A DNA stretch of 64,000 nucleotides from Sinanaerobacter sp. ZZT-01 (GTDB taxonomy: Bacteria > Bacillota > Clostridia > Peptostreptococcales > Anaerovoracaceae). The notes beneath the pieces were generated by a model. The model saw nothing but the letters and a program-made list of their open reading frames with translations. It made no database searches and was not told the origin of the DNA. The stretch spans positions 2,480,001 through 2,544,000 of the forward strand of contig NZ_CP141728.1 of NCBI RefSeq assembly GCF_035621135.1, in the 5' to 3' direction. Positions within the stretch are counted from its first letter, which is position 1. Every line of letters starts with the position of its first letter. Positions 1,872-18,620 of this stretch are shown in pieces. The position numbers and the translations under genes are program-made.

Positions 1872-2593
1872 CAGAATATGAGCAAAGAGTTTACATATGG
1901 TTGCAGAGTTTGGGTATAACAGAAACCTTCCCTTATAAGGAAAGTGGGGTTTTGGGGGTTGTAGACAGTATAGAAGATGTTTATTTTAAAGCTGTTTTTT
2001 CTTATGATTGTTTTTCTCTTGAGATTGAAACAAATCAGCACTACTCAGCCAATGAAATCCGTAATATTAAAGCAATTCAAAGGTATCAGAAAAAGATGGG
2101 TGCTTATTACAAACCTTTTCAATCCAAGAGAACCACAATTACTGAGGAAGATGTGAGAGCATACACACATGAGAAGTTAAAAGGGTTATTTAATAAGGCT
2201 TATAGGGTAAATAGAGGTATCTACTATATTTCGGGGTTGAAAGGCTATACTTCCACAACCTTATATGAGAACCCTATTGTTGAACCTGGGGCTGGTCATG
2301 GTGTGTCCGTCGGTTGTGGTATGTATAGAAAATATAGAACCTATGGAAAAATAGCTGTTGTTGCTGTTGAAACCTTAAAATTATTTGATGGTACAGAACT
2401 TGTCTTTAATTACCCTTTTAGTATTAAAGGTAGAGAAACAAGCAGCAACAGTATTTATGAGGTTTACGACCTTGCTTACAAACACGGTGAAAACTTTGAA
2501 TTATTAGAAGATAGGCGATTTTACAGTAGTCAGCAGAAGAAAATTGTAAAAAAGCTGAAGAAGTTAGGGGTTGGTAAGTCTCATGAGCAATAA
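1862..2593 (+). CDS. Hypothetical island protein
   Basis: 243 aa, ATG start with AAGGAGGAGGG just upstream. The N-terminal third is mixed alpha/beta. The middle holds a Gly-rich stretch (VEPGAGHGVSVGCGMYRK, about residues 140-157) that could be a loop or active-site region, though it matches no motif I know. The C-terminus is Lys-rich and basic (KKIVKKLKKLGVGK). It overlaps the following gene by 11 nt. Family not recognised; a nucleic-acid role would fit the basic tail but is a guess. Confidence 0.6.
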   Translation: MYLTEYEQRVYIWLQSLGITETFPYKESGVLGVVDSIEDVYFKAVFSYDCFSLEIETNQHYSANEIRNIKAIQRYQKKMGAYYKPFQSKRTTITEEDVRAYTHEKLKGLFNKAYRVNRGIYYISGLKGYTSTTLYENPIVEPGAGHGVSVGCGMYRKYRTYGKIAVVAVETLKLFDGTELVFNYPFSIKGRETSSNSIYEVYDLAYKHGENFELLEDRRFYSSQQKKIVKKLKKLGVGKSHEQ

Positions 2594-3176
2594 GTATTAT
2601 TTTATAAAAGCAAGACACCCTCAAATGGGTTTAAATATAGGGTTTGATAACTATATCTGCACAAACGAGGATTTCAAACGGTTTTGTAATGATGTATTTG
2701 ATTTGGAACACGATAAAGAATATGACCCTGTTTTTTCAAGATTTGTAAGGCAGGTTGAAAGTGTAGTAAAAGTTGAGGAAACTGAATCTGAAGACAGAAC
2801 CATTGAGGGTATTCAGAAAATGGTTGAAACCTCAAAGGGTAATGTAAAAATAGGATACACAAGGGTTAGGGAAAATCGTATTTATGTTCAAGTTGGTGAG
2901 ATATATTTAAGAGGGTATAAGATTTTCACAGCGGATTTATGTTTGGTAAATGCTATGGATTTCATACCTTTGGATAAAAGCAAAGGCAATGGGAATGTTG
3001 AAATAATTGAGTGGAATAAGAGAAAGGCAACTAAAGGTATCAAATTTATACATAATAAGATAGAAAATATTTTGTATTTAGTTGACATGTTGTTTCAAAC
3101 TTATGAAGCTATGCGAGAGGATGTAGAGAACCCCACAGAGTTGAATTTAACCTTTTTCATAGAACCTTTAATATAG
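2583..3176 (+). CDS. Hypothetical island protein; a 3' relic of a homolog lies at 7199-7306
   Basis: 197 aa from the ATG at 2583; an in-frame GTG at 2571 is possible. No domain recognised. The C-terminal segment (MREDVENPTELNLTFFIEPL) is matched by a decayed reading frame at 7199-7306, just before the second defence operon. In both places a terminator and a paralogous Cro-type repressor follow. So this gene family marked the upstream border of a cassette unit that was duplicated. It closes the 928-3176 transcription unit. Confidence 0.6.
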   Translation: MSNKYYFIKARHPQMGLNIGFDNYICTNEDFKRFCNDVFDLEHDKEYDPVFSRFVRQVESVVKVEETESEDRTIEGIQKMVETSKGNVKIGYTRVRENRIYVQVGEIYLRGYKIFTADLCLVNAMDFIPLDKSKGNGNVEIIEWNKRKATKGIKFIHNKIENILYLVDMLFQTYEAMREDVENPTELNLTFFIEPLI

Positions 3177-3183
3177 AAAGGAA

Positions 3184-3211
3184 AGCACCCTTGAAGTTTA
3201 GGGTGTTTTTT
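3184..3211 (+). terminator. Rho-independent terminator
   Basis: CACCCT and AGGGTG form a 6-bp stem around an 8-nt loop, followed by six T residues, 8 nt after the stop of the 928-3176 unit. It separates that unit from the repressor promoter downstream. Confidence 0.8.
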
Positions 3212-3263
3212 CTTTGCTTGAATATATTTTAACTATACAAAGTTATATCTTAACTATAATTTA

Positions 3264-3310
3264 TTGATTTTTCGGGCGATTGATGTTATACTTGTTGCTA
3301 TTGACATCAA
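3264..3310 (+). promoter_or_regulatory. Promoter and operator of the first Cro-type repressor
   Basis: -35 TTGATT (3264-3269), 17-bp spacer, -10 TATACT (3287-3292), then 8 bp, then the near-palindrome TTGACATCAA (3301-3310) over the expected start of transcription. The second repressor at 7503 has exactly the same arrangement (7423-7469), with the palindrome in the opposite orientation. A repressor site overlapping +1 is the usual layout for negative autoregulation. Binding by these repressors is inferred. Confidence 0.75.
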
Positions 3311-3340
3311 TATATGAGTTGAACATGAGGAGGGATGTAC

Positions 3341-3547
3341 GTGATTTCATATAGACCCTTTAGGGTATTGATAGCAGAAAGAAATATTGAAATAACTCAA
3401 TTAGCAAAAGATTTGGGTATTTCACCAAATACTGCGGCTAAGTTAAATGCGAAAAAAGAGGAAAATGAGCCTGTTTCGCTGAAAATTATAGAAAAACTAT
3501 GTAATCACTTAGGGGTCCCTGTAGAGAAAATTATAGAGATAAAGTAG
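3341..3547 (+). CDS. Cro/CI-type helix-turn-helix repressor A
   Basis: 68 aa starting at GTG 3341. The ATG at 3335 abuts GAGGAGGG, while the GTG has proper spacing and aligns with the ATG of the paralog at 7503. Essentially the whole protein is one HTH_XRE/Cro domain: the region around ITQLAKDLGISPNTAAKLN is helix 2-turn-helix 3. By hand alignment it matches the second repressor at about 52 of 67 positions. It heads the operon running into the GmrSD-type restriction gene, and its promoter carries a palindrome shared with the other copy. It probably represses itself and the operon. Confidence 0.85.
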   Translation: MISYRPFRVLIAERNIEITQLAKDLGISPNTAAKLNAKKEENEPVSLKIIEKLCNHLGVPVEKIIEIK

Positions 3548-3565
3548 AGAGGTGGGTTTTTAATA

Positions 3566-3958
3566 GTGAGAACTGTAAAAGACGTAAAAGAGTTAAAAGA
3601 CAATATTGATACTCTCCATAAGTATATAAATGATAAAACAGAACCTACGTATGATTTTGCTATTAATCTTATCAAAAAGGGTACTTGTTTTGTTGTTGTT
3701 AAAACTGAAAAAGGTTATGAGTTTTACCCAAGCCGTTTTATTGGGTATTATGATAATGATATGGACAAGCACCTTAACAACACTGAGAAAGATGGAAAAG
3801 AAACAAACCCTGTTATATCAGAGATATTAGGTAATAAACCTGAACAAAACCCTTTGATAGATAAACAGTATCAAGAATATTGTAAGTCATTAGGATTTAC
3901 AGCAAGAGATAAAGGTTCCTTTGGAGTAGAGAGAAAGTATTGGGAGGTTATAGAATGA
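3566..3958 (+). CDS. Hypothetical protein of defence operon A
   Basis: 130 aa, GTG start with GAGGTGGG upstream, 18 nt after the repressor. The middle reads as a compact alpha/beta domain with FYPSRFIGYYDN, an H-L-N-N turn, and a D-G-x-x-T-N-P motif followed by IL. The C-terminus has a CKSLGF ... FGVERKYW segment. The pattern recalls accessory domains near HNH and methyl-directed restriction genes, but I cannot name the family. It overlaps the GmrSD-type gene by 4 nt, so the two are translationally coupled and it is likely a partner of that enzyme. Confidence 0.6.
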   Translation: MRTVKDVKELKDNIDTLHKYINDKTEPTYDFAINLIKKGTCFVVVKTEKGYEFYPSRFIGYYDNDMDKHLNNTEKDGKETNPVISEILGNKPEQNPLIDKQYQEYCKSLGFTARDKGSFGVERKYWEVIE

Positions 3959-5733
3959 CAGTCAATCCTAAGGCAGATTTATTTGTACCTGCAAGCCTTT
4001 CTCTGGCTGATGTGTATACAAGTGGGGACGTAATTTATCAAATTCCTGATTATCAAAGACCTTATTCTTGGGTAGATGAGCAGGTAGAGCAGTTATGGGA
4101 AGATTTATTAGAAGCCTATGAAAATAATAAAGAAGATGAGAACTTAGACAGTAACTACTTTTTAGGTTCTCTTATTGTGGTTCAAAAGGGTAAGATTGAG
4201 GATGTTGTAGATGGTCAGCAAAGATTGACTACTCTTATGATTCTTTTATGTGTTATAAGACAAACCTTTCCTAAATTGAATAAGACCGTAGATGTTAATG
4301 AGTTCCCGTCTGTGGTTAAAATAGGAAAAATAAAAAGTTGTATTGCTGACACGAATGATTTGACGAGGTTAAGATTACAACCAGATGTTTCCCAATCTTC
4401 AAATGTTCAGGAGTTAATATTTGATGATGAAATTGACTTTACAACATATGAAAAACCAAGCAAGAAGCAAGTAGAGACAGATGCAAAGTATAGATATATT
4501 AATACTGCTGTGATTTGTCGTAACCATTTAATAGAGTTAGGTGAAGAAAAATCAGGTGAGTTTGTAAATTATCTAATGAATAAGGTAAAGATGATTAAGA
4601 TTACTTGCTTTGACGAAAGTTTTGCTATTAAATTGTTTCAAGTACTTAATGACAGAGGTATGGACCTTTCGGCAGCAGATATTATAAAGAGTTATCTCCT
4701 TTCCACTGTTGGACCAGATAAGCATAAGCATGATACTTTTATGTATGACTGGAGATTATGTGAAGAATGGGTAAAAGAACTTGATGGTGACGATTTAACA
4801 GACCTTTTTACCTATTATGAATACTACTTGCTGGGTAGTAACCCTAAAAAATCATTGGTTGATGAATTAAAGGTTCTTTTCAAAGGGAAAGACTCAAATG
4901 TAGTATTAAGGGATTTTAAGGAGTTTGTTTCTTGTTATAGGCTTATCTACAATTCAACAGATAAGTTGATAAACAGTTTTTGGTATTTACCTTGGGGTTC
5001 TTATTGGGCAACTATGTTGATAGCAGCAGAACACATAAAATACCCTGAAAAAGAAGAATTACAGTTATCTTTAAGAAATTTCTTCTTCTTAAATTACATA
5101 GCAGGGGTTACGTTGAATAGTTTGAAACAAACCCTTTTCAATATCCTTATTGGTATTAAAAATAAGGATTCTGTTGATAGTTTAAAAGCTATAATGGAAG
5201 ATAAGTTAAATGCTATGAACACAAAACAACAGGTTCTAAGTAAGCTGAAGGGTGAAGTTTACTATGAAGGTTGGTTGAAAGCTGTTCTTGCTGTGATTGA
5301 ATATTATCAAACTGATGAAGATGAGGTTTCGTTTATCTCTCTTGATTATAAGTCTTTGAATGTTGAGCATGTGTACCCACAAACTCCTGCAGAAGGTAGT
5401 AAATGGTTGAAGATGTTCCCTGAGGGTGGTCAATATTTAAATACTTTAGGAAATCTCACTTTGTTGAGTGGTACAAAGAATAAGGCAGCACAGAACTTCC
5501 CTTTCAATGAGAAAATCTTCATCTATCAAGGGCTAGATAAGAATGGTAAAAAGACAATAACCAAGCAGGGTCAAGTAACTGTATACCAAATTTCTCAAAA
5601 GATTGTGAATGACTACGTGGCAAACACTTATAAAAAACAGTGGAATGAAGAAGCAGTGCAAGATAGATTTAACTGGTTATGTGAGCAAATTGGAGAGATA
5701 TTTGATTTAGACGTGGAGACTATATTGTACTGA
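3955..5733 (+). CDS. GmrSD-type DUF262/DUF1524 restriction enzyme
   Basis: 592 aa from the ATG at 3955, preceded by GGAGGTTATAGA. The N-terminal DUF262 (GmrS-like, ParB/sulfiredoxin-fold) domain shows IPDYQRPYSW (about residues 31-40) and VVDGQQRLTTL (about 86-96), the conserved nucleotide-binding and hydrolysis motifs. The C-terminal DUF1524 (GmrD-like HNH) domain shows NVEHVYPQTP and LGNLTLLSGTKNKAAQNFPF, giving the His-Asn nuclease centre. Such fused proteins are type IV, modification-dependent restriction enzymes; related proteins act in BREX and phosphorothioate systems. The substrate here cannot be read from sequence. It appears intact. Confidence 0.9.
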   Translation: MTVNPKADLFVPASLSLADVYTSGDVIYQIPDYQRPYSWVDEQVEQLWEDLLEAYENNKEDENLDSNYFLGSLIVVQKGKIEDVVDGQQRLTTLMILLCVIRQTFPKLNKTVDVNEFPSVVKIGKIKSCIADTNDLTRLRLQPDVSQSSNVQELIFDDEIDFTTYEKPSKKQVETDAKYRYINTAVICRNHLIELGEEKSGEFVNYLMNKVKMIKITCFDESFAIKLFQVLNDRGMDLSAADIIKSYLLSTVGPDKHKHDTFMYDWRLCEEWVKELDGDDLTDLFTYYEYYLLGSNPKKSLVDELKVLFKGKDSNVVLRDFKEFVSCYRLIYNSTDKLINSFWYLPWGSYWATMLIAAEHIKYPEKEELQLSLRNFFFLNYIAGVTLNSLKQTLFNILIGIKNKDSVDSLKAIMEDKLNAMNTKQQVLSKLKGEVYYEGWLKAVLAVIEYYQTDEDEVSFISLDYKSLNVEHVYPQTPAEGSKWLKMFPEGGQYLNTLGNLTLLSGTKNKAAQNFPFNEKIFIYQGLDKNGKKTITKQGQVTVYQISQKIVNDYVANTYKKQWNEEAVQDRFNWLCEQIGEIFDLDVETILY

Positions 5734-5761
5734 AATAGTTTTGATTGGGGTTGAGGGTACG

Positions 5762-6958
5762 GTGAAATTAAAGAAGTCAGTTATTTTACTAATGACTATT
5801 TTAATACTATCTTTTGTGTTTGTTGGTTGTTCTCAAGGTGTTTCAGAAACCTCAACACAAGGGGTTGGTGATAATTCGACAACGACTGAAAACCCTGATA
5901 TTGTTGATACAGTAGGTTTAGAGGATACATCCCCCACTATATCAAATACCTCGTCTGAAAGTCCTACAACCTCAATAAATGGGGTTATGAGGGTACATTT
6001 CATAGACGTAGGGCAAGGGGATGCAACTTTCGTTGAATTACCAAATAAAGAAACAATGCTTATAGATGGGGGTCCGTCTAAAGAAGTAGTTGCAGACTAT
6101 GTAAAGAATTTAGGGTATAACAGTATAACTTATGTGATAGCAACACATCCGGATTCAGACCATATTTCAGGTTTACCTACAGTTTTAGATGATTTTTCTG
6201 TTGAGAAATTCTATATGCCTGAAAAGGAACACACAACACAAATTTTTGAGAAAATGTTAGATTCTATTGCCTCCAATGGGTGTGAAGCAATCTATGCTCT
6301 CTCAGGTAAATCTATAATAGATACAACAGATTTAAAAATAAGTTTTGTGGGTCCTACAAAGCAGTATTCAGATAATAATGCTTCATCTGCTGTGGTAAAG
6401 CTTGTTTATAAGGGTAATTCCCTTCTGTTTACAGGAGATGCAGACTACACCGCAGAAAAAGATATGATAGCAGCAGGGTATAACCTAACTGCTGACGTTT
6501 TAAAAGTAGGTCATCATGGTAGTTCATCTTCTACTTCTGAAGTGTTTTTGAAAGCTGTAAACCCTAAAATTGCTGTTATATCTGTGGGTAAAGATAATAG
6601 TTATGGTCACCCTACTCAAGAAGTTTTGACTTTACTGAGTGAATATAAGATAGAGATATATAGGACAGATGAGGTTGGCACAGTAATATTTGAGTGTGAT
6701 GGGGTTAATTACACGATTGAGCAGTTAAAATCTACTATACAAGCAAATGCCCCTCCTACACCTACTGTTGTTGAAGAAAACAATGTAAAAACAGAAACTT
6801 CTACAACCGATAATACTGCTGTTGTTTATAGGACAAAAACAGGGACAAAGTATCACAATGCCGGTTGTCCTTATTTAAAGAGTAGTATAGAAACAACTGT
6901 ATCCGAAGCACAAAGTATAGGGTTAACACCTTGTTCAAGGTGTAATCCACCAAAATAA
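5762..6958 (+). CDS. ComEC-like metallo-beta-lactamase-fold lipoprotein
   Basis: About 398 aa from GTG 5762. The N-terminus is a lipoprotein signal: basic residues, a hydrophobic run, then lipobox VFVGC. After a Ser/Thr-rich linker comes the hydrolase domain: FIDVGQGDATFVELP, MLIDGG, ATHPDSDHISG (metal ligands), LLFTGDAD, VLKVGHHGSSSSTS. This is the pattern of the ComEC C-terminal nuclease-like domain. The last 45 residues (KYHNAGCPYLK ... LTPCSRCNPP) form the small Cys-containing module often attached to secreted Firmicutes nucleases. It is expected on the outer face of the membrane, perhaps cutting incoming DNA. It follows the GmrSD-type gene by 28 nt. Confidence 0.85.
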   Translation: MKLKKSVILLMTILILSFVFVGCSQGVSETSTQGVGDNSTTTENPDIVDTVGLEDTSPTISNTSSESPTTSINGVMRVHFIDVGQGDATFVELPNKETMLIDGGPSKEVVADYVKNLGYNSITYVIATHPDSDHISGLPTVLDDFSVEKFYMPEKEHTTQIFEKMLDSIASNGCEAIYALSGKSIIDTTDLKISFVGPTKQYSDNNASSAVVKLVYKGNSLLFTGDADYTAEKDMIAAGYNLTADVLKVGHHGSSSSTSEVFLKAVNPKIAVISVGKDNSYGHPTQEVLTLLSEYKIEIYRTDEVGTVIFECDGVNYTIEQLKSTIQANAPPTPTVVEENNVKTETSTTDNTAVVYRTKTGTKYHNAGCPYLKSSIETTVSEAQSIGLTPCSRCNPPK

Positions 6959-6972
6959 AGGAGATTATGGGT

Positions 6973-7173
6973 ATGAAGGTGATAATTGATAGGTTTGAGG
7001 GTGAATATGCTGTTGTTGAGTTAGAAGATGGTACAATAGTAAATATGCTTAAGACCCTTATACCTGAAAATGCAAAAGAGGGTAGTATAATAACTATCTC
7101 GTGTAATGAGAATGAAACAGAGAATAGACAAGAGAATATGAAAAAGAAAATGAATTCGATTTTTAAGAAATAA
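6973..7173 (+). CDS. DUF3006 family protein
   Basis: 66 aa from ATG 6973, with GGAG 10 nt upstream; ATG 6967 is an alternative only 4 nt from it. The sequence VIIDRFEGEYAVVELEDG is the DUF3006 signature, a small beta-barrel-like domain ending in a charged helix. In Firmicutes these genes regularly sit next to ComEC-like metallo-beta-lactamase genes, as here (8-14 nt spacing), so it is probably an accessory to the lipoprotein upstream. It closes defence operon A. Confidence 0.85.
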   Translation: MKVIIDRFEGEYAVVELEDGTIVNMLKTLIPENAKEGSIITISCNENETENRQENMKKKMNSIFKK

Positions 7174-7198
7174 GAAAATCATAATGCATATTAAATAA

Positions 7199-7306
7199 TG
7201 CTATGGGTTTTACTATATTTTGTTTAGCACTCTTGAATTAATGGATAAGGATGTTATGAATCCAATGGAACTATACTTAGCTAAGGTAATAGAACCTTTA
7301 CTATAA
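7199..7306 (+). pseudogene. 3' relic of a homolog of the 2583-3176 gene
   Basis: An open frame without a proper start runs from 7199 to a TAA at 7304-7306. Its last 29 codons (ending NPMELYLAKVIEPLL) match the C-terminus of the 197-aa protein at 2583-3176 (ending NPTELNLTFFIEPLI) at about 16 of 29 positions. A TAA at 7196-7198 closes the frame upstream. The relic is followed by a terminator and a repressor, in the same order as the intact copy. Confidence 0.7.
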
Positions 7307-7312
7307 ATCGAA

Positions 7313-7358
7313 AAGAAGGAAGGTTATTCTGTAAGGATACCTTCCTTCTTTGCTTTTT
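7313..7358 (+). terminator. Rho-independent terminator, 12-bp perfect stem
   Basis: AAGAAGGAAGGT pairs perfectly with ACCTTCCTTCTT across a 14-nt loop, followed by TGCTTTTT. It ends transcription from operon A before the promoter of operon B. Confidence 0.85.
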
Positions 7359-7422
7359 ATATGAGTCAATATTTATAAAATTATATTTGAACTACTATAT
7401 TCTATATCTAAGATATTATTAA

Positions 7423-7469
7423 TTGTATTTATTGGGGGAATGGTATATAATTATTGATATTGATGTCAA
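7423..7469 (+). promoter_or_regulatory. Promoter and operator of the second Cro-type repressor
   Basis: -35 TTGTAT (7423-7428), 17-bp spacer, -10 TATAAT (7446-7451), 8 bp, then palindrome TTGATGTCAA (7460-7469). The architecture equals that at 3264-3310. It should drive the repressor and the long type I restriction and defence operon behind it. Confidence 0.8.
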
Positions 7470-7502
7470 GATTGAATTGTAAGAAATAAAGGGGGTACTC
7501 GA

Positions 7503-7709
7503 ATGATTTCATATAGGCCATTTAGAGTTCTGGTAGCAGACAGAAACATAGAAGTAACACAGTTGGCAAGGAAATTGGGCATATCCCCCAATACTATGTC
7601 GAAGCTAAATGCAAAAAAAGATGAGAATGAGGCAGTTTCTTTAAAAACAATAGAAAAGCTTTGCAAACATCTTGAAGTAAGAGTTGAACAAATTTTAGAG
7701 ATTAAGTGA
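7503..7709 (+). CDS. Cro/CI-type helix-turn-helix repressor B
   Basis: 68 aa, ATG start with AAAGGGGGT upstream. A single HTH domain (VTQLARKLGISPNTMSKLN), closely related to the repressor at 3341. Ten nucleotides separate its stop from the hsdR start at 7720, so it is the first gene of the hsdRMS operon. Differences from its paralog include the recognition-helix region (NTMSK against NTAAK). That could change specificity, although both operators share the same palindrome. Confidence 0.85.
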   Translation: MISYRPFRVLVADRNIEVTQLARKLGISPNTMSKLNAKKDENEAVSLKTIEKLCKHLEVRVEQILEIK

Positions 7710-7719
7710 GGTGTTAATA

Positions 7720-10700
7720 ATGGGGATAAATAAAATAAAACACAATGAGGATTCGAGAGTTAAAATACCTGCATTACTACACTTTACACGTCTGGGATAT
7801 ACATATCAAAGAAAGACAAGTTCTGTCATAGACACAAGAAATAATATATTTGTAGACATATTTGCTGAAAGCATTCGCAAGATAAATGGAAAAGCTTACT
7901 CAGATATAGATATTCAAAGCTTTATTAAAGAAATAGCGAAATTAACTGATAATAATGTAGATAAAGGTGAAGCATTTTTCAATCGTTTAGTAAAAAGCAC
8001 AGGAGTTAAGTTCATAGATTTTGAGAAAATCTATAGAAATGACTTCAGGGTTGTCACCGAATTACCTTTCAGTGGGGAGAGGAATACATTTAGGCCTGAT
8101 ATAACAATTTTAATTAACGGTATTCCTGTCGGGTTTTTAGAGGTCAAGAAACCTAATAATCAAGAAGGAATCCAGAAAGAATTTAGAAGAATGAGGGAGC
8201 GATTTGGTTTTAATGATTGTACTCATTTTTTTAATCAATTACAGTTGTTAGGGTTTTCTAATAATCAGGATTATGATGACGAAGAAAGAGTTAGGAGAGT
8301 AGGTAGTTTTTATACCACACCCAATTGGAAAGACACAAAATATAACTTGTTCCGTGAGGAAGAAGAAATCTATGTAAAAGAATACATATCTGACGAAGAT
8401 TTAGCTGAAGTCCTTACAGATACTAATTCATTGAGCCTTTCTACTTTAGAAGAGTTTAAGACAAATCTAAGGGTAGAAACTCCTTGCAATAAGTTCATCA
8501 CGTCTGTTTTTTCTATACATAGACTCATGTTCTTTATAAAGTATGGGATAGTATATGTAAATTCTCCTGTTGATGGCTTAAATAAGCATATTTTAAGATA
8601 CCCCCAGTATTTTGCAATCCAAAAGACCGTTGAAAAGCTTGAAAAAGAGAATATGAAACGTGGAGTAGTATGGCATACTCAGGGCTCAGGCAAAACTGCC
8701 TTAGCATACTATTTAACAAATGTTTTAAGAAATCACTATCGTAAAAACAGAATCGTAACAAAATTCTATTTTGTAGTTGATAGATTGGATTTATTAATAC
8801 AAGCGACAGGAGAGTTTTCTAGTAGAGGCATGACAATAGCAAGCATTAATTCTAAACATGATTTTGCTAATAATATCAAGTCAAGTGCTGTAATTGGTGC
8901 AGATACCCAGCAAGGAACCTATAAAGAAACAATGAATGTTGTTAATATTCAAAAGTTCTCAGAGGATTCAAGTGTAGAGTTAAAAGGAGCAGGGAGAGTT
9001 CAAAGAATCTACTTCATTGACGAAGTACATAGGGGTTATAAGGTAAAAGGGCAGTTTCTAGCCAATCTTCTTGGTGCAGACCCTAATGGTATCTACATTG
9101 GTTTAACTGGTACTCCTATTTTGAAAGAAGACTTTAAAACTACTGATATATTTGAAGGGTATATTCACAAGTATTACTATAATAAGAGTATTGCAGATGG
9201 ATACACCTTGAAAATTAAGAAAGAAAATATTGCTACTGAGTTCAAAGAGGATATTCGTGGTATCTTACAAATTGGAGAGGACGAAAAGATAGCTTCAGCA
9301 AAGTGGAACTACATAACGGAAAGACCTGGATTTGTGCAAAAGTTTTGTGAGTATATTCAAAAAGACTTTAGTATGTTCAGAGAGAATGATAATGTAGACA
9401 AAAGTGTTGGATTTATGGTAGTTGCCTCTACAACTGGACAAGCCAAGTCAATACATGAGTGGTTTAATACCAATGGGGGTTTAAATACAGCATTAGTGTT
9501 ATCTGATGATGAGTACAGCAAAGATAATAAGGAAAAACAGGAAGGTTTTAGAGGAAAAAAGAATAAGGAAACAGGTAAGATTGAAAGTAAATATGATGGT
9601 GTTATTGTCTTTAATATGTTACTTACAGGTTTTGATGCTCCAAGACTGAAACGATTATATCTACTCAGAGAAATTAGAGAACATAATCTATTACAAACCT
9701 TAGCTCGGGTTAACAGACCATACAAAAACATGCAATATGGGTATGTTGTAGATTTTGTTGATATTACTGAGCAATACGAAGAAACAAATAGACGTTATCT
9801 TGAGGAGCTAAAAGGCGACTTGCAAGGTGAAGATGAAGATGTAGTTGCAGACATTGATGATTTTTTTGTAGACGTAGATAAAGCCAAGAAAACTATAAAA
9901 GATATCACAACAAAACATTTATTTATATATATGCCCAATATTGAAACGAATTTGGAGGACTTTAGCCGTCAAATAGAACCTTTGGAGTTAGACGAACTTC
10001 GAGAGATAAAAAAATATCTTACTCTATATAAAGAGTCCTATAATGAGCTAAGAATGAGTCATGAAAATGTATCTGATATTCCTATTGACCGCATTAATAA
10101 AGCCTTTTATGAAGTAAGTAATAGAATAAGTATAAAAGTATTGGAAGGTTATTTAGACTCTGATGACGAGGATGTTGACGATATAGATTTTACTCAGCTT
10201 ATTATTGAGTTCTTTAAGACAGGTGAAATTGACCTGGAATTTGATATGGGCAATGATATTCTTGAAAAAATAAATAAGGTTCAAAATGCAATGTCAAGCA
10301 ATGGAGATAAGAAAGACCCTGATTACTTAGAATTGTATAGACAATATAAGGATATTATTAGGTCTATCAAGGAAATGAGTAGAGTAACTGATGCTAACAG
10401 TTTTGTGGATGATTTAAGCAACTTAGAAAAGAAATTTTTAATTTTAAACAATACGAATAACAGCATTATTAAAGTGTATCGTGGTAATGATGCAGCTATG
10501 AAAATACACAAGAGAGTTTTAGGGGCCTTTGGTGAAAATATTTCTGCAGGTGAGTTACCACCTATTTTGATGAAAATTATTGATATTGCAAATAGTGAGG
10601 TGTGTCATTTGTCAAACCCATCAGAGGCGGTAATTAAGCGAACTTTAGCAAGACCAATAAGAGATGCTTTCAAAAAGAACGGGTATTCGTTGGCCCCTAC

Positions 10701-10758
10701 ACAGGTAGATAATATCGTGGTAATATTTATAGATAATATGTTCTCTAAGGAGGACTAG
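7720..10758 (+). CDS. hsdR: Type I restriction enzyme, R (HsdR) subunit
   Basis: 1012 aa from ATG 7720 (GAGGTG upstream). The N-terminal nuclease domain contains a PD-(D/E)XK centre seen as FRPDITILINGIPVGFLEVK around residues 120-145. The translocase follows: Walker A HTQGSGKTALAYYL (about 317), Walker B YFIDEVHRG (about 430), motif III GLTGTPI (about 463), and a helicase C domain with ARVNRPYKNMQYGYVVD. It cuts unmodified DNA after ATP-driven translocation in complex with HsdM and HsdS. Length and motifs are complete. Confidence 0.97.
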   Translation: MGINKIKHNEDSRVKIPALLHFTRLGYTYQRKTSSVIDTRNNIFVDIFAESIRKINGKAYSDIDIQSFIKEIAKLTDNNVDKGEAFFNRLVKSTGVKFIDFEKIYRNDFRVVTELPFSGERNTFRPDITILINGIPVGFLEVKKPNNQEGIQKEFRRMRERFGFNDCTHFFNQLQLLGFSNNQDYDDEERVRRVGSFYTTPNWKDTKYNLFREEEEIYVKEYISDEDLAEVLTDTNSLSLSTLEEFKTNLRVETPCNKFITSVFSIHRLMFFIKYGIVYVNSPVDGLNKHILRYPQYFAIQKTVEKLEKENMKRGVVWHTQGSGKTALAYYLTNVLRNHYRKNRIVTKFYFVVDRLDLLIQATGEFSSRGMTIASINSKHDFANNIKSSAVIGADTQQGTYKETMNVVNIQKFSEDSSVELKGAGRVQRIYFIDEVHRGYKVKGQFLANLLGADPNGIYIGLTGTPILKEDFKTTDIFEGYIHKYYYNKSIADGYTLKIKKENIATEFKEDIRGILQIGEDEKIASAKWNYITERPGFVQKFCEYIQKDFSMFRENDNVDKSVGFMVVASTTGQAKSIHEWFNTNGGLNTALVLSDDEYSKDNKEKQEGFRGKKNKETGKIESKYDGVIVFNMLLTGFDAPRLKRLYLLREIREHNLLQTLARVNRPYKNMQYGYVVDFVDITEQYEETNRRYLEELKGDLQGEDEDVVADIDDFFVDVDKAKKTIKDITTKHLFIYMPNIETNLEDFSRQIEPLELDELREIKKYLTLYKESYNELRMSHENVSDIPIDRINKAFYEVSNRISIKVLEGYLDSDDEDVDDIDFTQLIIEFFKTGEIDLEFDMGNDILEKINKVQNAMSSNGDKKDPDYLELYRQYKDIIRSIKEMSRVTDANSFVDDLSNLEKKFLILNNTNNSIIKVYRGNDAAMKIHKRVLGAFGENISAGELPPILMKIIDIANSEVCHLSNPSEAVIKRTLARPIRDAFKKNGYSLAPTQVDNIVVIFIDNMFSKED

Positions 10759-10776: not shown

Positions 10777-12360
10777 ATGGGTTTTCAAGAGCACGTGGCA
10801 CAGATGAAAACAATGATTGATAGATTAAAAACCCTAACATCTGATTTGGGGTTAGGAAATACAGGAGACGAGTATAAAATCATCTCAGAACTTTTTACTT
10901 ATAAGTTTCTAAATGATAAGTTGTTATATGAGTTTAATAAGAGAGAAGATAAAGAAGAAGAATTTGATGAATTTGTACATTATGTGGGAAGAAATACTGC
11001 TAAGATGAACAAAGAACATTTAATTAGTGAGTTATTTAATCAGCAGAGTGAAGATAATTTTCATGTAATTTTTGATTTAGCATTACAGGAAGTCAGCGAG
11101 TTAAACAAGGATATTTACTCCATTGAAACTACAACAGGTAGCAAGAAACCTTTGTTTGAGCCCTTGAGTGCTTATCTTCGTGATGAAGATAAGGAGTTAG
11201 AACTTGCTAAAAGAGCAATCAATATTCTGTTTGAGTTTGACTTCGGGAATATATATGAGGGTGGTTTTGATTACTTTTCTACGGTTTTTGAGCATTTGAT
11301 TTCAGATTATAATAAGGACTCAGGACAGTATGCGGAGTATTTCACGCCTCTATTTGCTGGACAAATTATGGCAGATATTGTGTTTGACGACACTCCGGTT
11401 ACTAACGTGTCTGTTTATGACCCTGCTGCTGGTTCTGGGACATTGCTTTTATCCTTAGCAAGTAAGATAGGTACAAATAACTGTACGATTTATAGCCAAG
11501 ATATATCTCAAAAGTCCACCTCCTTTTTGCGAATTAATTTGATACTCAATAAATTAGCACACTCGTTACATAATGTAAAAGAGGGTAACACCCTTCTGAT
11601 GCCTGCTCATAAGGAAGATGATAAATTACAAAAGTTTGATTTCATTGTAAGTAATCCACCTTTCAAAACAGATTTTTCTAGTATTATAGAGAGTCTAAAG
11701 GTGGACCCTTATAATAGGTTTTTTGCTGGTGTTCCTAATATTCCAAACAAAGACGTAGAAAAAATGGCTATATATCTATGTTTCTTGCAACATATTCTTG
11801 CTACCTTAGCAGACAAGGGTAAGGCAGCTGTTGTAGTTCCGACGGGATTCCTCACAGCTAAAACGGGTATTCCTAAGAAGATTAGAGAACACATTATTTC
11901 AGAAAAAATGCTTCGTGGAGTTATCTCAATGCCACCAAATATTTTTGCAAATACAGGCACAAACGTATCTATCCTGTTTTTAGATAAGAGCAAACCATAT
12001 GAGGACGCATTTCTTATGGATGCCTCACATTTAGGAGAAAAGATTAAAACAGATGGTAAGAATCAAAAGACGGTACTTTCAACAGATGATATTGCTTTAA
12101 TTATTAACACATTTAAAGGCAGAATATGTATTGAAGATTTAGGTATCGAAGTTTCCTATGAGGATATTGAGAAGGCAAAACATTCTTTCTTTGCAGGACA
12201 ATATTTTGAAGCAAAGATAGAATATATCGAACTATCACCTGAAGAGTTTAATAATAAGATTAAGGAAATGAAGCAGTTATTGTGTGCTCATTTCGACGAA
12301 TCTCAAAGATTAACAAATGAAATATTAACAAGTCTGGGGGGGTTGAAACTTGATATATAA
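10777..12360 (+). CDS. hsdM: Type I restriction-modification, M (HsdM) subunit
   Basis: 527 aa, ATG start with AGGAGG upstream, 18 nt after hsdR. The N-terminal HsdM helical domain is followed by the N6-adenine methyltransferase core: SAM motif DPAAGSGTLLLSLA (about residue 215) and catalytic SNPPF (about 295). It methylates the recognition sequence using S-adenosylmethionine and forms the M2S core of the enzyme. The 3' end overlaps hsdS by 11 nt, indicating translational coupling. Confidence 0.97.
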   Translation: MGFQEHVAQMKTMIDRLKTLTSDLGLGNTGDEYKIISELFTYKFLNDKLLYEFNKREDKEEEFDEFVHYVGRNTAKMNKEHLISELFNQQSEDNFHVIFDLALQEVSELNKDIYSIETTTGSKKPLFEPLSAYLRDEDKELELAKRAINILFEFDFGNIYEGGFDYFSTVFEHLISDYNKDSGQYAEYFTPLFAGQIMADIVFDDTPVTNVSVYDPAAGSGTLLLSLASKIGTNNCTIYSQDISQKSTSFLRINLILNKLAHSLHNVKEGNTLLMPAHKEDDKLQKFDFIVSNPPFKTDFSSIIESLKVDPYNRFFAGVPNIPNKDVEKMAIYLCFLQHILATLADKGKAAVVVPTGFLTAKTGIPKKIREHIISEKMLRGVISMPPNIFANTGTNVSILFLDKSKPYEDAFLMDASHLGEKIKTDGKNQKTVLSTDDIALIINTFKGRICIEDLGIEVSYEDIEKAKHSFFAGQYFEAKIEYIELSPEEFNNKIKEMKQLLCAHFDESQRLTNEILTSLGGLKLDI

Positions 12361-13597
12361 CGAAAGCAAATACAACACCCACTGGGAGACTAAGAAATTA
12401 AGTCAATTAGGTACATTTGATAGAGGTAAATCAAGGCATAGACCACGTGATGATAAGCGACTATTTGAAGATGGCAAGTATCCATTAATTCAGACAGGTG
12501 AAGTTAAAGCAGCTAATTTATATATAACCTCTCATAATGCCGAGTATAGTGAATTTGGGTTGACACAGAGCAAAATATGGCCTGATGGAACACTATGTAT
12601 AACAATTGCTGCTAATATAGCAGAAACAGCATTATTGGGTTATCCTATGTGTTTTCCTGATAGTGTTATAGGATTTAATGCCTTCCCACAAGAATCGTCT
12701 GAATTGTTTATGCATTATGTGTTTACATACATAAGAAAGGCAATTCAGAATTCAACCGGTGGTAGTATTCAGGATAATATCAATAAAGAGTACCTTGAGA
12801 GTTTAGATTTTAAGATTCCGCCTAAACCATATCAAGACAAAATAGTTCATATCTTATCGTCTATTGATAAGAAGATTGAGTTAAATAATAAAACAAATGA
12901 GGACCTCGAGGCATTGGCAAAAACTATTTTTGACTTTTGGTTTGTGCAATTTGAATTTCCTAATAAAGAGGGTAAACCATATAAATCCTCTGGTGGGAAA
13001 ATGGTATGGAATAAGGAACTAAATAGAGAAATTCCACAGGGCTGGGAGGCTGGCAAATTAAGTGATATTGCTGATATTATTATGGGGCAATCTCCCTTAG
13101 GCTCGTCCTATAATACAGTGCAGGAAGGCATGGTGTTCTACCAAGGACGTACCGATTTTGGGTATAGATTTCCTACCAGTAGAGTTTATACAACTCAACC
13201 TTCAAGGATAGCAGAAAAAGGAGATATTTTACTAAGTGTACGAGCCCCTGTTGGTGATTTGAATATAGCTAATGAAAATTGCTGTATTGGTAGAGGTTTG
13301 GCATCCCTTAGGAGCAAACAGAATGTAAATAGTTATTTATATTACTTAATGCAAAAGTTGTATTCTAATTTTGCTTCCTTTAATGATGCAGGTACAACTT
13401 TTGGTTCTGTAGACAAAGATTTTTTATATGAACTAAAGATTTTAAAACCATTAGCTAATGTGATTCAACAATTTGAAGAAGTAGCTAATAAGTATGACAA
13501 ATTGGTGTTGGAAAATGAAATTAACAGCAGAAGTTTATACAATTGGCGGGATTTGTTGCTCCCAATGTTAATGAATGGTCAAGTTACTTTTAATTAG
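12350..13597 (+). CDS. hsdS: Type I restriction-modification, specificity (HsdS) subunit
   Basis: 415 aa, apparent TTG start behind a G-rich binding site and overlapping hsdM. Two target-recognition domains are visible. The first runs from about residue 10 to 170 and is followed by a helical spacer (DKIVHILSSIDKKIELNNKT). The second starts at GWEAGKLSDIADIIMG and is followed by a second spacer ending in NWRDLLLPMLMNGQV. This is the normal full-length two-TRD arrangement, recognising a bipartite sequence that cannot be predicted by eye. No sign of a silent specificity cassette was seen nearby. Confidence 0.95.
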   Translation: MIYNESKYNTHWETKKLSQLGTFDRGKSRHRPRDDKRLFEDGKYPLIQTGEVKAANLYITSHNAEYSEFGLTQSKIWPDGTLCITIAANIAETALLGYPMCFPDSVIGFNAFPQESSELFMHYVFTYIRKAIQNSTGGSIQDNINKEYLESLDFKIPPKPYQDKIVHILSSIDKKIELNNKTNEDLEALAKTIFDFWFVQFEFPNKEGKPYKSSGGKMVWNKELNREIPQGWEAGKLSDIADIIMGQSPLGSSYNTVQEGMVFYQGRTDFGYRFPTSRVYTTQPSRIAEKGDILLSVRAPVGDLNIANENCCIGRGLASLRSKQNVNSYLYYLMQKLYSNFASFNDAGTTFGSVDKDFLYELKILKPLANVIQQFEEVANKYDKLVLENEINSRSLYNWRDLLLPMLMNGQVTFN

Positions 13598-13643
13598 TTG
13601 GTTATGGGGGTAATATCAAGGAGCGATGAAGGGGATGTTTTAA

Positions 13644-15203
13644 ATAAACAGAGATACTTATTATAAGATTTGCAGACTTATCGAGAAAAAATCTGAAGGA
13701 GACTATTGGGACTATAAGCAGGAGTGGCATAGTGATAATGGTAAATTGCTGCATGATATTCTCTGTTTTGCAAACACAGTTCATAACGAAGACTGCTATA
13801 TCATTATAGGGGTTACAGATAATGGTGAGATTATAGGACTCTCTGAGGATAGTCCTAATCGAAAAAATCAAGAAAATATCCTGACATTACTTCATAGTAC
13901 AGTCTTTGCAGGAGATTTGACTCCAAGTATTTCTTTGGAAACAATTAAAATAAATGATAAAGAGGTCGATGTTTTAACAATACATAATTCATTTGATGTT
14001 CCTTATTACTTGAAATTTGTGTCTAAGAGAAGTAATGGTCTTCAATTTGGATATATCTATTCTCGAAATGGTGACAGAAACACTCCAATCACTGAGAACA
14101 GCCCTATGGGTCAAATTGAATTGCTTTGGAAGAAAAGGCTTGGCCTTTTGAATCCCCCTTTGCAGCAAATTGTCAGCAGGCTAAAAAACAAGACTGAGTG
14201 GGAGAAAATTGAGGATACATATTACAATATCTATAATCCTGATTTCAAGTTAGTTGAGGAATGGGACGATGAAGATAGACGACACGACAATAGGCCCTTC
14301 TATTCTTATAATCAATGTAATGAGAGTACCAGTTTTACTACGTTGAAAATAATGTGCAGAGAAACAGTCTTAAAACAATTTGAAATAGTGACATTGGACA
14401 GTGGTAGGTATAGTACACCTGCCCCAGAATGGGGTTTTATACATGACCCCATTCATAAGACACAATCTTTATTTTCTTACAGGTACATGTTAAAAGGTAG
14501 CATAGATTTTGCCTTACAACAGTTTTTGTATGATGAAGAAAATCAGGAAGAATGGATGGCAAGATATAGATTTGATGAAGTAGTGCTTTATTTTGATAAT
14601 AAAACAGACCAAGAGAATTTCCATCAGACTATAGAGTGTAACCCTGAAATAGTTAACCAATATATAGAAGATGCGAAATTGAGGAGCTACCCTATCAGTT
14701 CAAATAACAAGTTAGAAATAAAGGACGTTACCAATAAACTCATTACGGGTTTTGCTTTTAATAGATTTCTATTTGATTATCGTAGAAGGCAGCAAGGAGT
14801 TGAGGTAAAAAGGATTAAGTCTGTTAAGGTCATTAGTAGCTCCGCGACGATTTTAGGCAGAGAAAATGTAGCTAAAGAACAGATAGATATAAATGAAAAT
14901 GGAGCAGTAAGGCATTCGCTATTCAACAATAGTGATAAAAAGCCAGAGCAAGTATTCAAGTATAAAGTTGATAAGTATTGGATGAGGGAGTTTTTGAATT
15001 TCCTTGAGCCTATTACAACAGAGTGGAAAACCGATTATACAGTAAAAGTTTGTAGTGAGTATAATTGGGAATTTATTATGAAATATTCAGATGGTACTAT
15101 CAAGAAGGTAAAGGGAACCTTTGCTCCCTCTCCAGAAGGAGAAGAGGTAGAAAGAAGAATACAGGTTTTAACTAAGTACGATATAAAGCCTATTATATTT
15201 TAA
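13644..15203 (+). CDS. AlbA_2/Schlafen-type DNA-binding protein, start unclear
   Basis: The readable frame begins right after a TAA at 13641-13643. Residues from there (YYKICRLIEKKSEGDYWDYK, then LLHDILCFANT and YIIIGVTDNGEIIGL) are the usual AlbA_2 (Schlafen AlbA-like) N-terminal domain. So the protein should start near 13635, where an ATG sits behind AAGGAG, but the third codon from that ATG is the TAA. Either a non-standard start (ATA at 13644 or an ATT soon after) is used, the gene carries a nonsense mutation, or translation starts at TTG 13746 and loses part of the domain. The rest (about 380 aa) has no domain I recognise. It lies 38 nt after hsdS. AlbA_2 proteins recur in defence islands. 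Confidence 0.75.
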   Translation: MNRDTYYKICRLIEKKSEGDYWDYKQEWHSDNGKLLHDILCFANTVHNEDCYIIIGVTDNGEIIGLSEDSPNRKNQENILTLLHSTVFAGDLTPSISLETIKINDKEVDVLTIHNSFDVPYYLKFVSKRSNGLQFGYIYSRNGDRNTPITENSPMGQIELLWKKRLGLLNPPLQQIVSRLKNKTEWEKIEDTYYNIYNPDFKLVEEWDDEDRRHDNRPFYSYNQCNESTSFTTLKIMCRETVLKQFEIVTLDSGRYSTPAPEWGFIHDPIHKTQSLFSYRYMLKGSIDFALQQFLYDEENQEEWMARYRFDEVVLYFDNKTDQENFHQTIECNPEIVNQYIEDAKLRSYPISSNNKLEIKDVTNKLITGFAFNRFLFDYRRRQQGVEVKRIKSVKVISSSATILGRENVAKEQIDINENGAVRHSLFNNSDKKPEQVFKYKVDKYWMREFLNFLEPITTEWKTDYTVKVCSEYNWEFIMKYSDGTIKKVKGTFAPSPEGEEVERRIQVLTKYDIKPIIF

Positions 15204-16458: not shown

Positions 16459-17046
16459 ATGGCGCATAAGTGTTTTATTTCTTTTAAAACAGAGGATTTT
16501 TCTTATAAGAAAGAGATACAAGATGATTTAGATGTTGATATGATTGATAAATCATTAAATGAGGCAATTGATTCAGATGACGAAGATTATATTATGAGAA
16601 AAATAAGAGAAGACTATCTTTCGGATTCGACTGTAACTATTCATTTAATTGGAAGTTATAGCGCTGAAAATAGTTGGTTGGAAGACCAAACCTATATAAA
16701 ACGAGAGCTGCAAGCCTCTCTTTACAATGGAAAAAACAACACTAAAAATGGTATTTTAGGTGTTGTTTTACCGTCTATGTATGAAAAAATATATAAGGGT
16801 GAATATTCATGTAGCACCTGTGGTGGAACTCATAATTATGTGAATATAAACAATGATACTGTCATTAAGGAATTTAGTTATAATTATTACATTCCTAAAA
16901 ACAGTGGATGTTGTTGGACTGAAGATGACAGATATTGTGTGTTGGTAAAATGGGATGATTTTAAAGATGACCCTAATACATATATTGACAAGGCATTTGA
17001 TAAAAGAAGTAGTCCTATTGCCTCAAAAACAAAGGTAAGACCTTGA
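16459..17046 (+). CDS. Thoeris ThsB-like TIR domain protein (DUF1863 type)
   Basis: 195 aa, ATG start with GGGGAGG upstream. The start HKCFISFKTEDF is the first strand and loop of a TIR-like fold. STVTIHLIGSYSAENSW (57-73) and YIKRELQASL (with Glu83) are the central strands and the helix carrying the usual catalytic Glu, followed by GILGVVLPSMYEK. This is the DUF1863/ThsB pattern, the sensor in Thoeris that makes a cyclic ADP-ribose-type signal from NAD. The C-terminal third adds Cys pairs (CSTCGGTH, GCCW) that could bind metal. No classical ThsA (SIR2-SLOG) gene lies nearby; the adjacent deoxyribosyltransferase-like protein may take that place. Confidence 0.75.
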   Translation: MAHKCFISFKTEDFSYKKEIQDDLDVDMIDKSLNEAIDSDDEDYIMRKIREDYLSDSTVTIHLIGSYSAENSWLEDQTYIKRELQASLYNGKNNTKNGILGVVLPSMYEKIYKGEYSCSTCGGTHNYVNINNDTVIKEFSYNYYIPKNSGCCWTEDDRYCVLVKWDDFKDDPNTYIDKAFDKRSSPIASKTKVRP

Positions 17047-17804: not shown

Positions 17805-18326
17805 TTGAGTAAAAAGATTGTATTTGAAAATAAGAAACAGGTTGATACCCTGAGAGAAAAAATAGTGAGCACAACAAATGCCAAGTTAAAAATGTTATGG
17901 CAGAGCGGTGAGGGTATAGATTTTCTAAGGAACGTTAAATTTGAGCCATGTGGGTATGACCCATTATTTGAGCATGACACAAACTTTATAGAGCAAACCA
18001 ATCAGACTTTTACTTATCTTGTCTGTCTTGTAGCCGTAGATATTCTTTTGTCAAAGTATCCATCACATAAGTTTACGGTGAGTTTTGGAACAGAATCCGG
18101 GTATGATGTGGTATCGGAGGATAGCAGTATTATCTGCGAATGTTTTGCAGTAACAGCACCGGACAGTAATGGTAAACTTGAAAAGGATACGAGGAAAGTA
18201 TTTGAGAATACCGATGCCGATAATAAGTATGTGATTTTTTACTCTTCAAATCCAAAGCCAATTCACATTGAGAACATCAGAAAAAAGTATAGTGATGTTG
18301 AAATTATAGCATTACAAAAGATATAA
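17805..18326 (+). CDS. Hypothetical island protein with possible nuclease-like core
   Basis: 173 aa, TTG start with AGGTGAG 8 nt upstream. The middle holds KFTVSFGTESGYDVVSEDSS followed by IICECFAVT. A G-x-E-x-G-Y-D turn and then an E-C-x-A strand is reminiscent of the D...E-x-K core of restriction-type nucleases, but the Lys is absent, so this is only a suggestion. The end (YVIFYSSNPKP ... YSDVEIIALQK) resembles the strand-helix-strand end of that fold. Last complete gene of the island before the comM junction. Confidence 0.5.
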   Translation: MSKKIVFENKKQVDTLREKIVSTTNAKLKMLWQSGEGIDFLRNVKFEPCGYDPLFEHDTNFIEQTNQTFTYLVCLVAVDILLSKYPSHKFTVSFGTESGYDVVSEDSSIICECFAVTAPDSNGKLEKDTRKVFENTDADNKYVIFYSSNPKPIHIENIRKKYSDVEIIALQKI

Positions 18327-18485: not shown

Positions 18486-18541
18486 ATGGTTGGCGAAAAA
18501 ATTTTCTAATTTCAGATTTTTACTATAAGGGGGTGTCTATA

Positions 18542-18574
18542 ATGGCACTCTTCTTACGTATAAGCAAACACTAA
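18542..18574 (+). CDS. 10-codon leader or truncated recombinase start
   Basis: ATG with AAGGGGGTG 6 nt upstream encodes MALFLRISKH, then TAA. The pattern A-L-[FY]-L-R-[IV]-S-K is how many large serine recombinases begin. Either this is the cut-off 5' end of such a gene or a leader peptide. Too short to prove. Confidence 0.25.
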   Translation: MALFLRISKH

Positions 18575-18620
18575 AAACCGTATAAATACAAAGCAAAACA
18601 GAACCATGAGGTTGCTACCT

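What the first reader, a model, noticed from the sequence alone, without database searches (positions are those of the whole stretch)
3264..7709. Two paralogous repressors with identical promoter-operator geometry head two separate defence operons
Repressors at 3341 and 7503 agree at about 52 of 67 positions. Both promoters have a 17-bp spacer and, exactly 8 bp after the -10, a TTGAYRTCAA palindrome. One heads a GmrSD-type operon, the other hsdRMS plus the TIR cluster. Shared operators would allow both repressors to control both operons, giving a common switch for the island's defences.
Basis: seen in the sequence. Interest (0 to 1): 0.8.

Follow-up and report, generated by a model that had tools for sequence, protein, structure and literature searches.

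The report
Twin repressors heading two defence operons
Two related small DNA-binding proteins each sit at the head of a different anti-phage operon in one mobile element and share the same short DNA site at their promoters, so the two operons are probably held down by one common, self-limiting brake.

Summary
Two 68-residue HTH_26 (Cro/C1-type) proteins agree at 52 of 68 positions. Each follows a -35/17 bp/-10 promoter with TTGAYRTCAA 8 bp after the -10. The two sites are one 10-mer read from opposite strands.

New evidence:
(1) Two other close relatives were found, in Oscillibacter ruminantium and a Clostridia MAG. Both keep the site 8 and 7 bp after a -10. ATTGATGTCAA (either strand) is common to all four upstream regions, although five of six pairs are only 54-58% identical elsewhere.
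(2) Of 34 exact sites in the genome 31 lie inside ORFs of 40 aa or more; only the two window sites have a -10 of the form TATAMT 7-8 bp before.
(3) None of 12 distant HTH relatives checked has the site.
(4) A stable hairpin, probably a terminator, precedes all four headers.
(5) Cargo differs: GmrSD; hsdRMS with Schlafen/TPR-S/TIR; a UvrD-type helicase; a distantly related hsdM-hsdS-hsdR.

Best reading: an autorepressor with a shared operator, as a portable header for exchangeable defence operons. Repression and cross-control are inferred, untested. The kind is known (RptR, BrxR, C proteins); my paper searches found no precedent for the twin, shared-operator arrangement.

The parts
3180..3211 (+). 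hairpin with T-run upstream of header 1, probable terminator of the preceding gene
   Evidence: 56-nt stretch folds at -16.9 kcal/mol, z -3.1
3264..3292 (+). promoter of header 1: TTGATT, 17 bp, TATACT
   Evidence: 9 of 12 consensus positions
3301..3310 (.). operator 1, TTGACATCAA, 8 bp after the -10
   Evidence: 11-mer shared by four headers
3280..3289 (.). imperfect second copy TTGATGTTAT (2 mismatches) overlapping the -10; the best extra match at header 2 has 3 mismatches (7454); may be chance
3341..3547 (+). rep1, 68-aa HTH_26 protein
   Evidence: HTH_26 E 1.1e-12
3566..3958 (+). 130-aa ORF, no Pfam or PADLOC family
3940..5733 (+). GmrSD-type (type IV) restriction enzyme, N and C domains fused
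5741..6958 (+). metallo-beta-lactamase-fold protein with a lipoprotein-like N terminus (signal read by eye)
6967..7173 (+). DUF3006 protein
7215..7360 (+). 3' remnant of an ORF like 2571-3176, plus a strong hairpin (7312-7351) before header 2
   Evidence: 7215-7709 matches L011 5710-6207 at 83.5%; 66-nt stretch folds at -24.8 kcal/mol, z -6.2
7423..7451 (+). promoter of header 2: TTGTAT, 17 bp, TATAAT
   Evidence: 9 of 12 consensus positions
7460..7469 (.). operator 2, TTGATGTCAA, 8 bp after the -10
7503..7709 (+). rep2, 68-aa HTH_26 protein
   Evidence: HTH_26 E 1.4e-16
7711..10758 (+). hsdR, type I restriction subunit
10777..12360 (+). hsdM
   Evidence: MTase_I E 4.5e-194
12350..13597 (+). 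hsdS
13746..15203 (+). Schlafen/AlbA_2 protein (PDC-S50); the same gene follows the header's helicase gene in Oscillibacter
   Evidence: 92.5% DNA identity
15223..16437 (+). TPR-S protein; residues 23-133 match a TIR effector profile (E 6e-9)
16459..17046 (+). ThsB-like TIR protein

Best explanation
rep1 and rep2 are small one-domain autorepressors of the Cro/C1 (HTH_26) family. A dimer binds TTGAYRTCAA, which occupies bases 9-18 after the -10 (about +3 to +12 by the usual numbering, recalled), and blocks RNA polymerase. Each gene is first in its own operon, so each limits itself and the defence genes behind it. The operators are the same 10-mer and the recognition helices are nearly the same, so each protein most likely binds both promoters and the two operons share one repressor pool. 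Shown: sequences, geometry, conservation in four of four close relatives, different cargo behind each header, hairpins before each header. Inferred: dimer binding, repression, cross-control, and relief on entry into a repressor-free cell or by an unknown phage signal.
For: Four of four close relatives have the site 7-8 bp after a -10. An 11-mer is common to all four 118-column upstream regions; column shuffles of the same alignment give this in 5 of 20000, 4-column block shuffles in 25 of 20000; leaving out Oscillibacter, 28 and 44 of 20000. Outside the site rep1 and rep2 upstream regions are 58% identical, and the MAG is 54-56% identical to the other three. Synonymous changes rep1-rep2 are saturated while the proteins are held (pS 0.80, pN 0.12), so identity by recent copying is unlikely. 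This genome: 34 exact sites, 31 inside ORFs of 40 aa or more; TATAMT 7-8 bp before the site only at the two window promoters. In the two relatives' genomes 16 of the 33 exact sites were classified: 16 of 16 lie in ORFs of 138 aa or more, none with the promoter geometry. Distant HTH relatives: 0 of 12 checked have the site. The stretch SPNTxxKLNAKK, expected to be the recognition helix and the residues after it, differs between rep1 and rep2 at two positions (32, 33).
Against: No binding or transcription data. Only four family members were found, two of them (rep2, Oscillibacter) close. The count of invariant columns at the site alone is not significant (9 of 11; 1303 of 20000 shuffles reach it); significance comes from reading the site on either strand. 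Half-sites are only 6 bp apart centre to centre, tight for a classical Cro/C1 dimer (recalled), so the true operator may be longer. Residues 32 and 33 differ between the paralogues, and residue 30 differs in the MAG. Exact sites exceed the reversed control in all three genomes (34 vs 17; 14 vs 0; 19 vs 2), unexplained. Weaker promoter matches (8 of 12) with the right gap also stand at two other exact sites, L004 and L046, both inside ORFs. The AlphaFold model is poor (pLDDT 61).
Confidence: 0.7

Rival explanations
1. Two insulated circuits: each paralogue has drifted to prefer its own promoter by bases flanking the 10-mer, so the operons are controlled separately.
For: Residues 32-33 are A,A in rep1 and M,S in rep2; flanks differ; rep1 has an extra imperfect site over its -10.
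Against: The core 10-mer is the same in both, and is kept in a relative with 74% identity; insulation would be expected to change the core (inference).
Confidence: 0.2
2. The shared site is only inherited duplicate DNA, or a promoter detail with no operator role.
For: Header homology spans promoter and gene together (3223-3554 vs 7382-7713, 70%).
Against: Saturated synonymous divergence, 58% identity elsewhere upstream, site retained in the MAG, central dinucleotide flipped between copies so that the same site is read from the other strand.
Confidence: 0.08
3. The site is read by a host regulator, not by these proteins.
For: Exact sites are more frequent than the reversed control in all three genomes (34 vs 17, 14 vs 0, 19 vs 2).
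Against: 31 of 34 in this genome, and all 16 of the 33 that were classified in the relatives' genomes, are in ORFs; the TATAMT arrangement is found in this genome only at the two headers.
Confidence: 0.07
4. C-protein-like controller: the protein activates at low level and represses at high level, timing restriction after methylation in a new host.
For: Small HTH protein first in a restriction-modification operon on a mobile element; imperfect second site at header 1.
Against: The conserved site lies after the -10, not upstream; no second site is conserved; three of four -10 boxes are TATAAT and the fourth TATACT, so no activator need be assumed.
Confidence: 0.08

Closest known systems
RptR, repressor of a type I RM defence island in enteropathogenic E. 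coli (PMC12255303; abstract, section list and passages seen)
   Same: Small single-domain protein encoded first in a type I RM operon, represses its own promoter through a short palindrome at the -10; also found upstream of other gene modules.
   Different: 79 aa protein whose authors first found no PDB homologue; three TAGCTA repeats in EPEC; described in Gammaproteobacteria; the passages I saw describe a single rptR gene in that island. RptR sequence not compared here.
BrxR/CapW WYL-domain regulators (PMC9122601: passages seen; PMC9122588 and PMC9122589: search listing only)
   Same: Autorepressor of a defence island, in pEFER one with a GmrSD-family enzyme (BrxU) and two BrxR boxes; mosaic cargo.
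   Different: WYL domain and 11-bp inverted repeats with a 5-bp spacer; the passages describe one brxR gene, not two paralogues; no WYL match here.
CapK/CapS (PMC13373217; passages seen)
   Same: Regulatory genes placed before diverse immune operons; palindromes at the promoters.
   Different: STAS-wHTH repressor with a kinase that responds to DNA damage; Pfam found no kinase in the ORFs searched next to rep1 or rep2.
Controller (C) proteins of type II RM systems (recalled, and as described in a passage of PMC12255303)
   Same: Small HTH protein heading restriction genes.
   Different: C proteins promote expression at low level and repress at high level, from upstream boxes (recalled); here one conserved site after the -10.

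Membership tests
HTH_26 / Cro-C1-type small regulators | Profile match above curated cut-off | tested here: met
   48.4 and 60.9 bits, cut-off 22
BrxR/CapW | WYL domain | tested here: not met
   only HTH_26/HTH_3 matched; 68 aa
RptR | TAGCTA repeats at the promoter | tested here: not met
   no TAGCTA in 3223-3340 or 7382-7502; of the three variant forms that paper allows, none at rep1, TATCTA and TATATA once each at rep2 in AT-rich DNA
RptR | RptR protein sequence and fold | not tested
   RptR sequence not fetched
C proteins | Upstream C-boxes and activation | tested here: inconclusive
   the only conserved site lies after the -10; activation cannot be tested
Defence-operon autorepressor (functional class) | First gene of a defence operon with a conserved site at its own promoter | tested here: met
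Defence-operon autorepressor (functional class) | Binding and repression | not testable with these tools
   needs bench work

The most novel reading that the evidence does not exclude
Terminator + promoter/operator + repressor is a portable, insulated header. Any defence cassette that lands behind it joins a shared regulon, because all headers keep one operator sequence. Defence modules are swapped behind the header (hsdRMS, UvrD-type helicase, GmrSD, another hsdMSR), and several headers in one mobile element give a single titratable brake that is released together when the element enters a repressor-free cell.
Probability: 0.35. Interest if true: 0.7.

Novelty: new variant of a known kind. 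Interest (0 to 1): 0.48.

Why it matters
How defence islands coordinate several systems is little known (so says the RptR abstract of regulation in general). A header that wires different, exchangeable defence operons to one operator would explain how newly gained modules come under control at once, and makes a clean prediction: removing one repressor should barely change either operon, removing both should raise both.

Tried and rejected
RNA hairpin at the palindrome: rejected by reasoning, the 10-mer leaves a 2-base loop. FNR-type box: rejected by spacing (recalled motif). More family members: viral contigs, plasmids (12 records, best 44% identity) and phages (16 records, at most 37%) by protein, and family/order/class/phylum genome sets (349, 393, 391, 398 genomes, overlapping and each including the window's own) gave no close copy beyond the window's two. 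The genome-contig scan gave two; it works by short peptide patterns made from two sequences and can miss relatives. Genome-wide regulon: none found beyond the two promoters. The third site outside an ORF of 40 aa or more (L024) has a best promoter score of 7 of 12; the six ORFs of 60 aa or more around it were looked at but not family-searched. Controls: L018's match lies in a 323-aa open frame and L008 is a weak relative (E 0.08), so these two of the 12 are poor controls; the other 11 plasmid and all 16 phage hits were not checked. One search masked the operator one column off; the identities quoted come from the corrected count (changes of at most 2 points). Of 33 exact sites in the relatives' genomes 16 were classified; of the other 17, two are the header sites and one lies in the MAG's hsdR region, the rest were not looked at. 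Structure model too poor to use; no fold search made. PDB sequence search gave 3 weak hits, not pursued. Paper searches that found no precedent for twin repressors with a shared operator heading two defence operons: (open-licence library; listings, with passages read from three papers).
Full report
OBSERVATION. The two proteins (window 3341-3547, GTG start, and 7503-7709) are 68 residues long and identical at 52. Both match HTH_26 well above the curated cut-off. In the 3.37-Mb genome only these two score as close copies; the next match has 36% identity. Both promoters have a 17-bp spacer and, 8 bp after the -10, TTGACATCAA (3301) or TTGATGTCAA (7460). These are one 10-mer in opposite orientation. 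The count of two exact sites in 64 kb is itself unremarkable (15 of 100 shuffles reach it); their place is what matters.

IS THE SITE AN OPERATOR? I looked for relatives. A pattern-based scan of one genome for each of 84,980 species gave two: Oscillibacter ruminantium GH1 (L011, 87% identity) and a Clostridia MAG (L012, 74%). Scans of 349 family, 393 order, 391 class and 398 phylum genomes (sets overlap, each includes the window's genome) gave, beyond the window's two, no match in the family set at E 1e-8 and in the others only distant matches, at best 51 bits against 148.5 and 153.9. Both close relatives have TTGATGTCAA, 8 and 7 bp after a TATAAT. All four upstream regions share an 11-mer, ATTGATGTCAA on either strand. 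In column shuffles of the alignment a shared 11-mer arises in 5 of 20000, in 4-column block shuffles in 25 of 20000; without Oscillibacter the figures are 28 and 44. By contrast the plain count of invariant columns at the site (9 of 11) is reached in 1303 of 20000 shuffles, so the signal depends on allowing the site to be read from either strand, as a symmetric dimer would. Outside the site, five of six pairs of upstream regions are 54-58% identical; rep2 with Oscillibacter is at 81%. The rep1 and rep2 genes are saturated at synonymous positions (pS 0.80) but keep their protein (pN 0.12).

CONTROLS. The genome has 34 exact sites (17 for the reversed pattern). Of the 34, 31 lie within an ORF of at least 40 aa; the three that do not are the two in the window and L024, whose best promoter score is 7 of 12. 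Two sites inside ORFs, L004 and L046, have promoter scores of 8 of 12 at gaps of 7 and 8. The stricter pattern TATAMT-N7/8-TTGAYRTCAA occurs 15 times in 349 family genomes, in 14 genomes; the only genome with two is this one, and both are the headers. The genomes of the two relatives hold 14 and 19 exact sites (reversed control 0 and 2); 16 of these 33 were classified and all 16 lie in ORFs of 138 aa or more without the promoter arrangement. The excess over the reversed control in all three genomes is unexplained. Of 12 distant HTH relatives (L007, L008, L013-L016, L017, L018-L022) none has the exact site in roughly 250-300 bp upstream; L008 and L018 are poor controls, and 11 plasmid and 16 phage relatives were not checked.

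WHAT THE HEADERS CONTROL. rep1 is followed, with gaps under 20 bp or overlaps, by a 130-aa ORF, a fused GmrSD enzyme, a metallo-beta-lactamase-fold protein and DUF3006. rep2 is followed by hsdR, hsdM, hsdS, then a Schlafen/AlbA_2 protein, a TPR-S protein and a ThsB-like TIR protein. In Oscillibacter the header is followed by a UvrD-type helicase (best PADLOC matches RTasHel and GajB) and then by the same Schlafen gene at 92.5% DNA identity. In the MAG it is followed by hsdM, hsdS, a DUF4145/PD-T7-4-like gene, a further ORF and an hsdR-like stretch that runs towards the end of the locus; its hsdM and hsdR are only 25-33% identical to the window's. So one header type stands before four different contents. 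Between window and Oscillibacter the Schlafen, GmrSD and DUF3006 pieces match at 92-95% of DNA positions, the header region at 83%, and the first cargo genes after the header not at all: a mosaic. The roughly 200-aa ORF that ends before header 1 (2571-3176) has a relative (43% identity) ending before the Oscillibacter header, and only its 3' end survives before header 2.

INSULATION. A stable hairpin stands before each of the four headers (stretches of 56-71 nt fold at -16.9, -24.8, -23.2 and -35.3 kcal/mol; z -3.1, -6.2, -5.5, -6.1). The two window hairpins and the Oscillibacter one are followed by, or include, T-rich DNA. The simplest role is termination of upstream transcription, so that each header sets expression of its operon (inference).

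MECHANISM. The site covers bases 9-18 after the -10, so the natural reading is steric repression by a dimer, with autoregulation. The expected recognition-helix stretch is the same in the two proteins but for residues 32 and 33 (the MAG also differs at residue 30), and the core sites are the same, so I expect each protein to act at both promoters. Pfam shows no sensor domain; relief may come by dilution when the element enters a new cell, by proteolysis, or by a phage product. None of this is shown here. Which residues face DNA is inferred from the family; the AlphaFold model is weak (pLDDT 61).

SETTING. The genome's comM gene appears split: an ORF with its N-terminal domain ends near genome position 2404.9 kb, and an ORF with its C-terminal domains begins at window 18606, genome 2498.6 kb. 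Just inside the left break lies a 696-aa large serine recombinase. The defence genes are thus the right-hand end of an element of about 94 kb.

COMPARISON. RptR (PMC12255303), BrxR/CapW (PMC9122601) and CapK/CapS (PMC13373217) establish that repressors encoded at the head of, or within, defence loci autoregulate through palindromes or inverted repeats (abstract and passages seen, not whole texts). The present proteins are not BrxR (no WYL domain) and their promoters hold no TAGCTA. What I did not find in the open-licence library is a case of two paralogous repressors with one operator heading two defence operons of one element. I therefore class it as a new variant of a known kind.

Noticed in passing
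window 18606 and genome 2404.3-2404.9 kb (L204, L207): comM appears split by an element of about 94 kb with a large serine recombinase (L207:1363-3453, minus strand) just inside the left break; the element also carries ParA, a DNA methylase and many ORFs with signal-peptide-like starts (by eye).
   Followed up: partly
window 13641-13746; L011 9000-9105: The Schlafen/AlbA_2 reading frame extends upstream of the first ATG/GTG/TTG to a conserved in-frame stop (ATG or GTG, TTT, TAA, ATA) in both genomes; its N-terminal part would need a non-standard start such as ATA, or read-through.
   Followed up: no
L011:2149-3409: In Oscillibacter the GmrSD gene lacks its N-terminal part and the neighbouring metallo-beta-lactamase-fold gene keeps only its C-terminal part, with no header copy in front: a decayed copy of the rep1 operon.
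   Followed up: partly
window 5741-7173: A secreted-looking metallo-beta-lactamase-fold protein and DUF3006 sit in the GmrSD operon, and remains of the same pair follow GmrSD in Oscillibacter; their role is unclear.
   Followed up: no
window 18495-18626; L011:3552-3683: The right end of the element, reaching about 20 bases into the comM-side ORF as called, recurs at 89% identity inside the Oscillibacter locus, as if a second element end were buried there.
   Followed up: no
window 2571-3176 and 17805-18326; L011:4610-5801: Two ORFs with no Pfam match, far apart in the window, have neighbouring relatives directly before the Oscillibacter header.
   Followed up: no
G000, L011 and L012 genomes: TTGAYRTCAA is more frequent than its reversed form in all three genomes (34 vs 17, 14 vs 0, 19 vs 2), although nearly all classified copies lie in ORFs.
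   Followed up: partly
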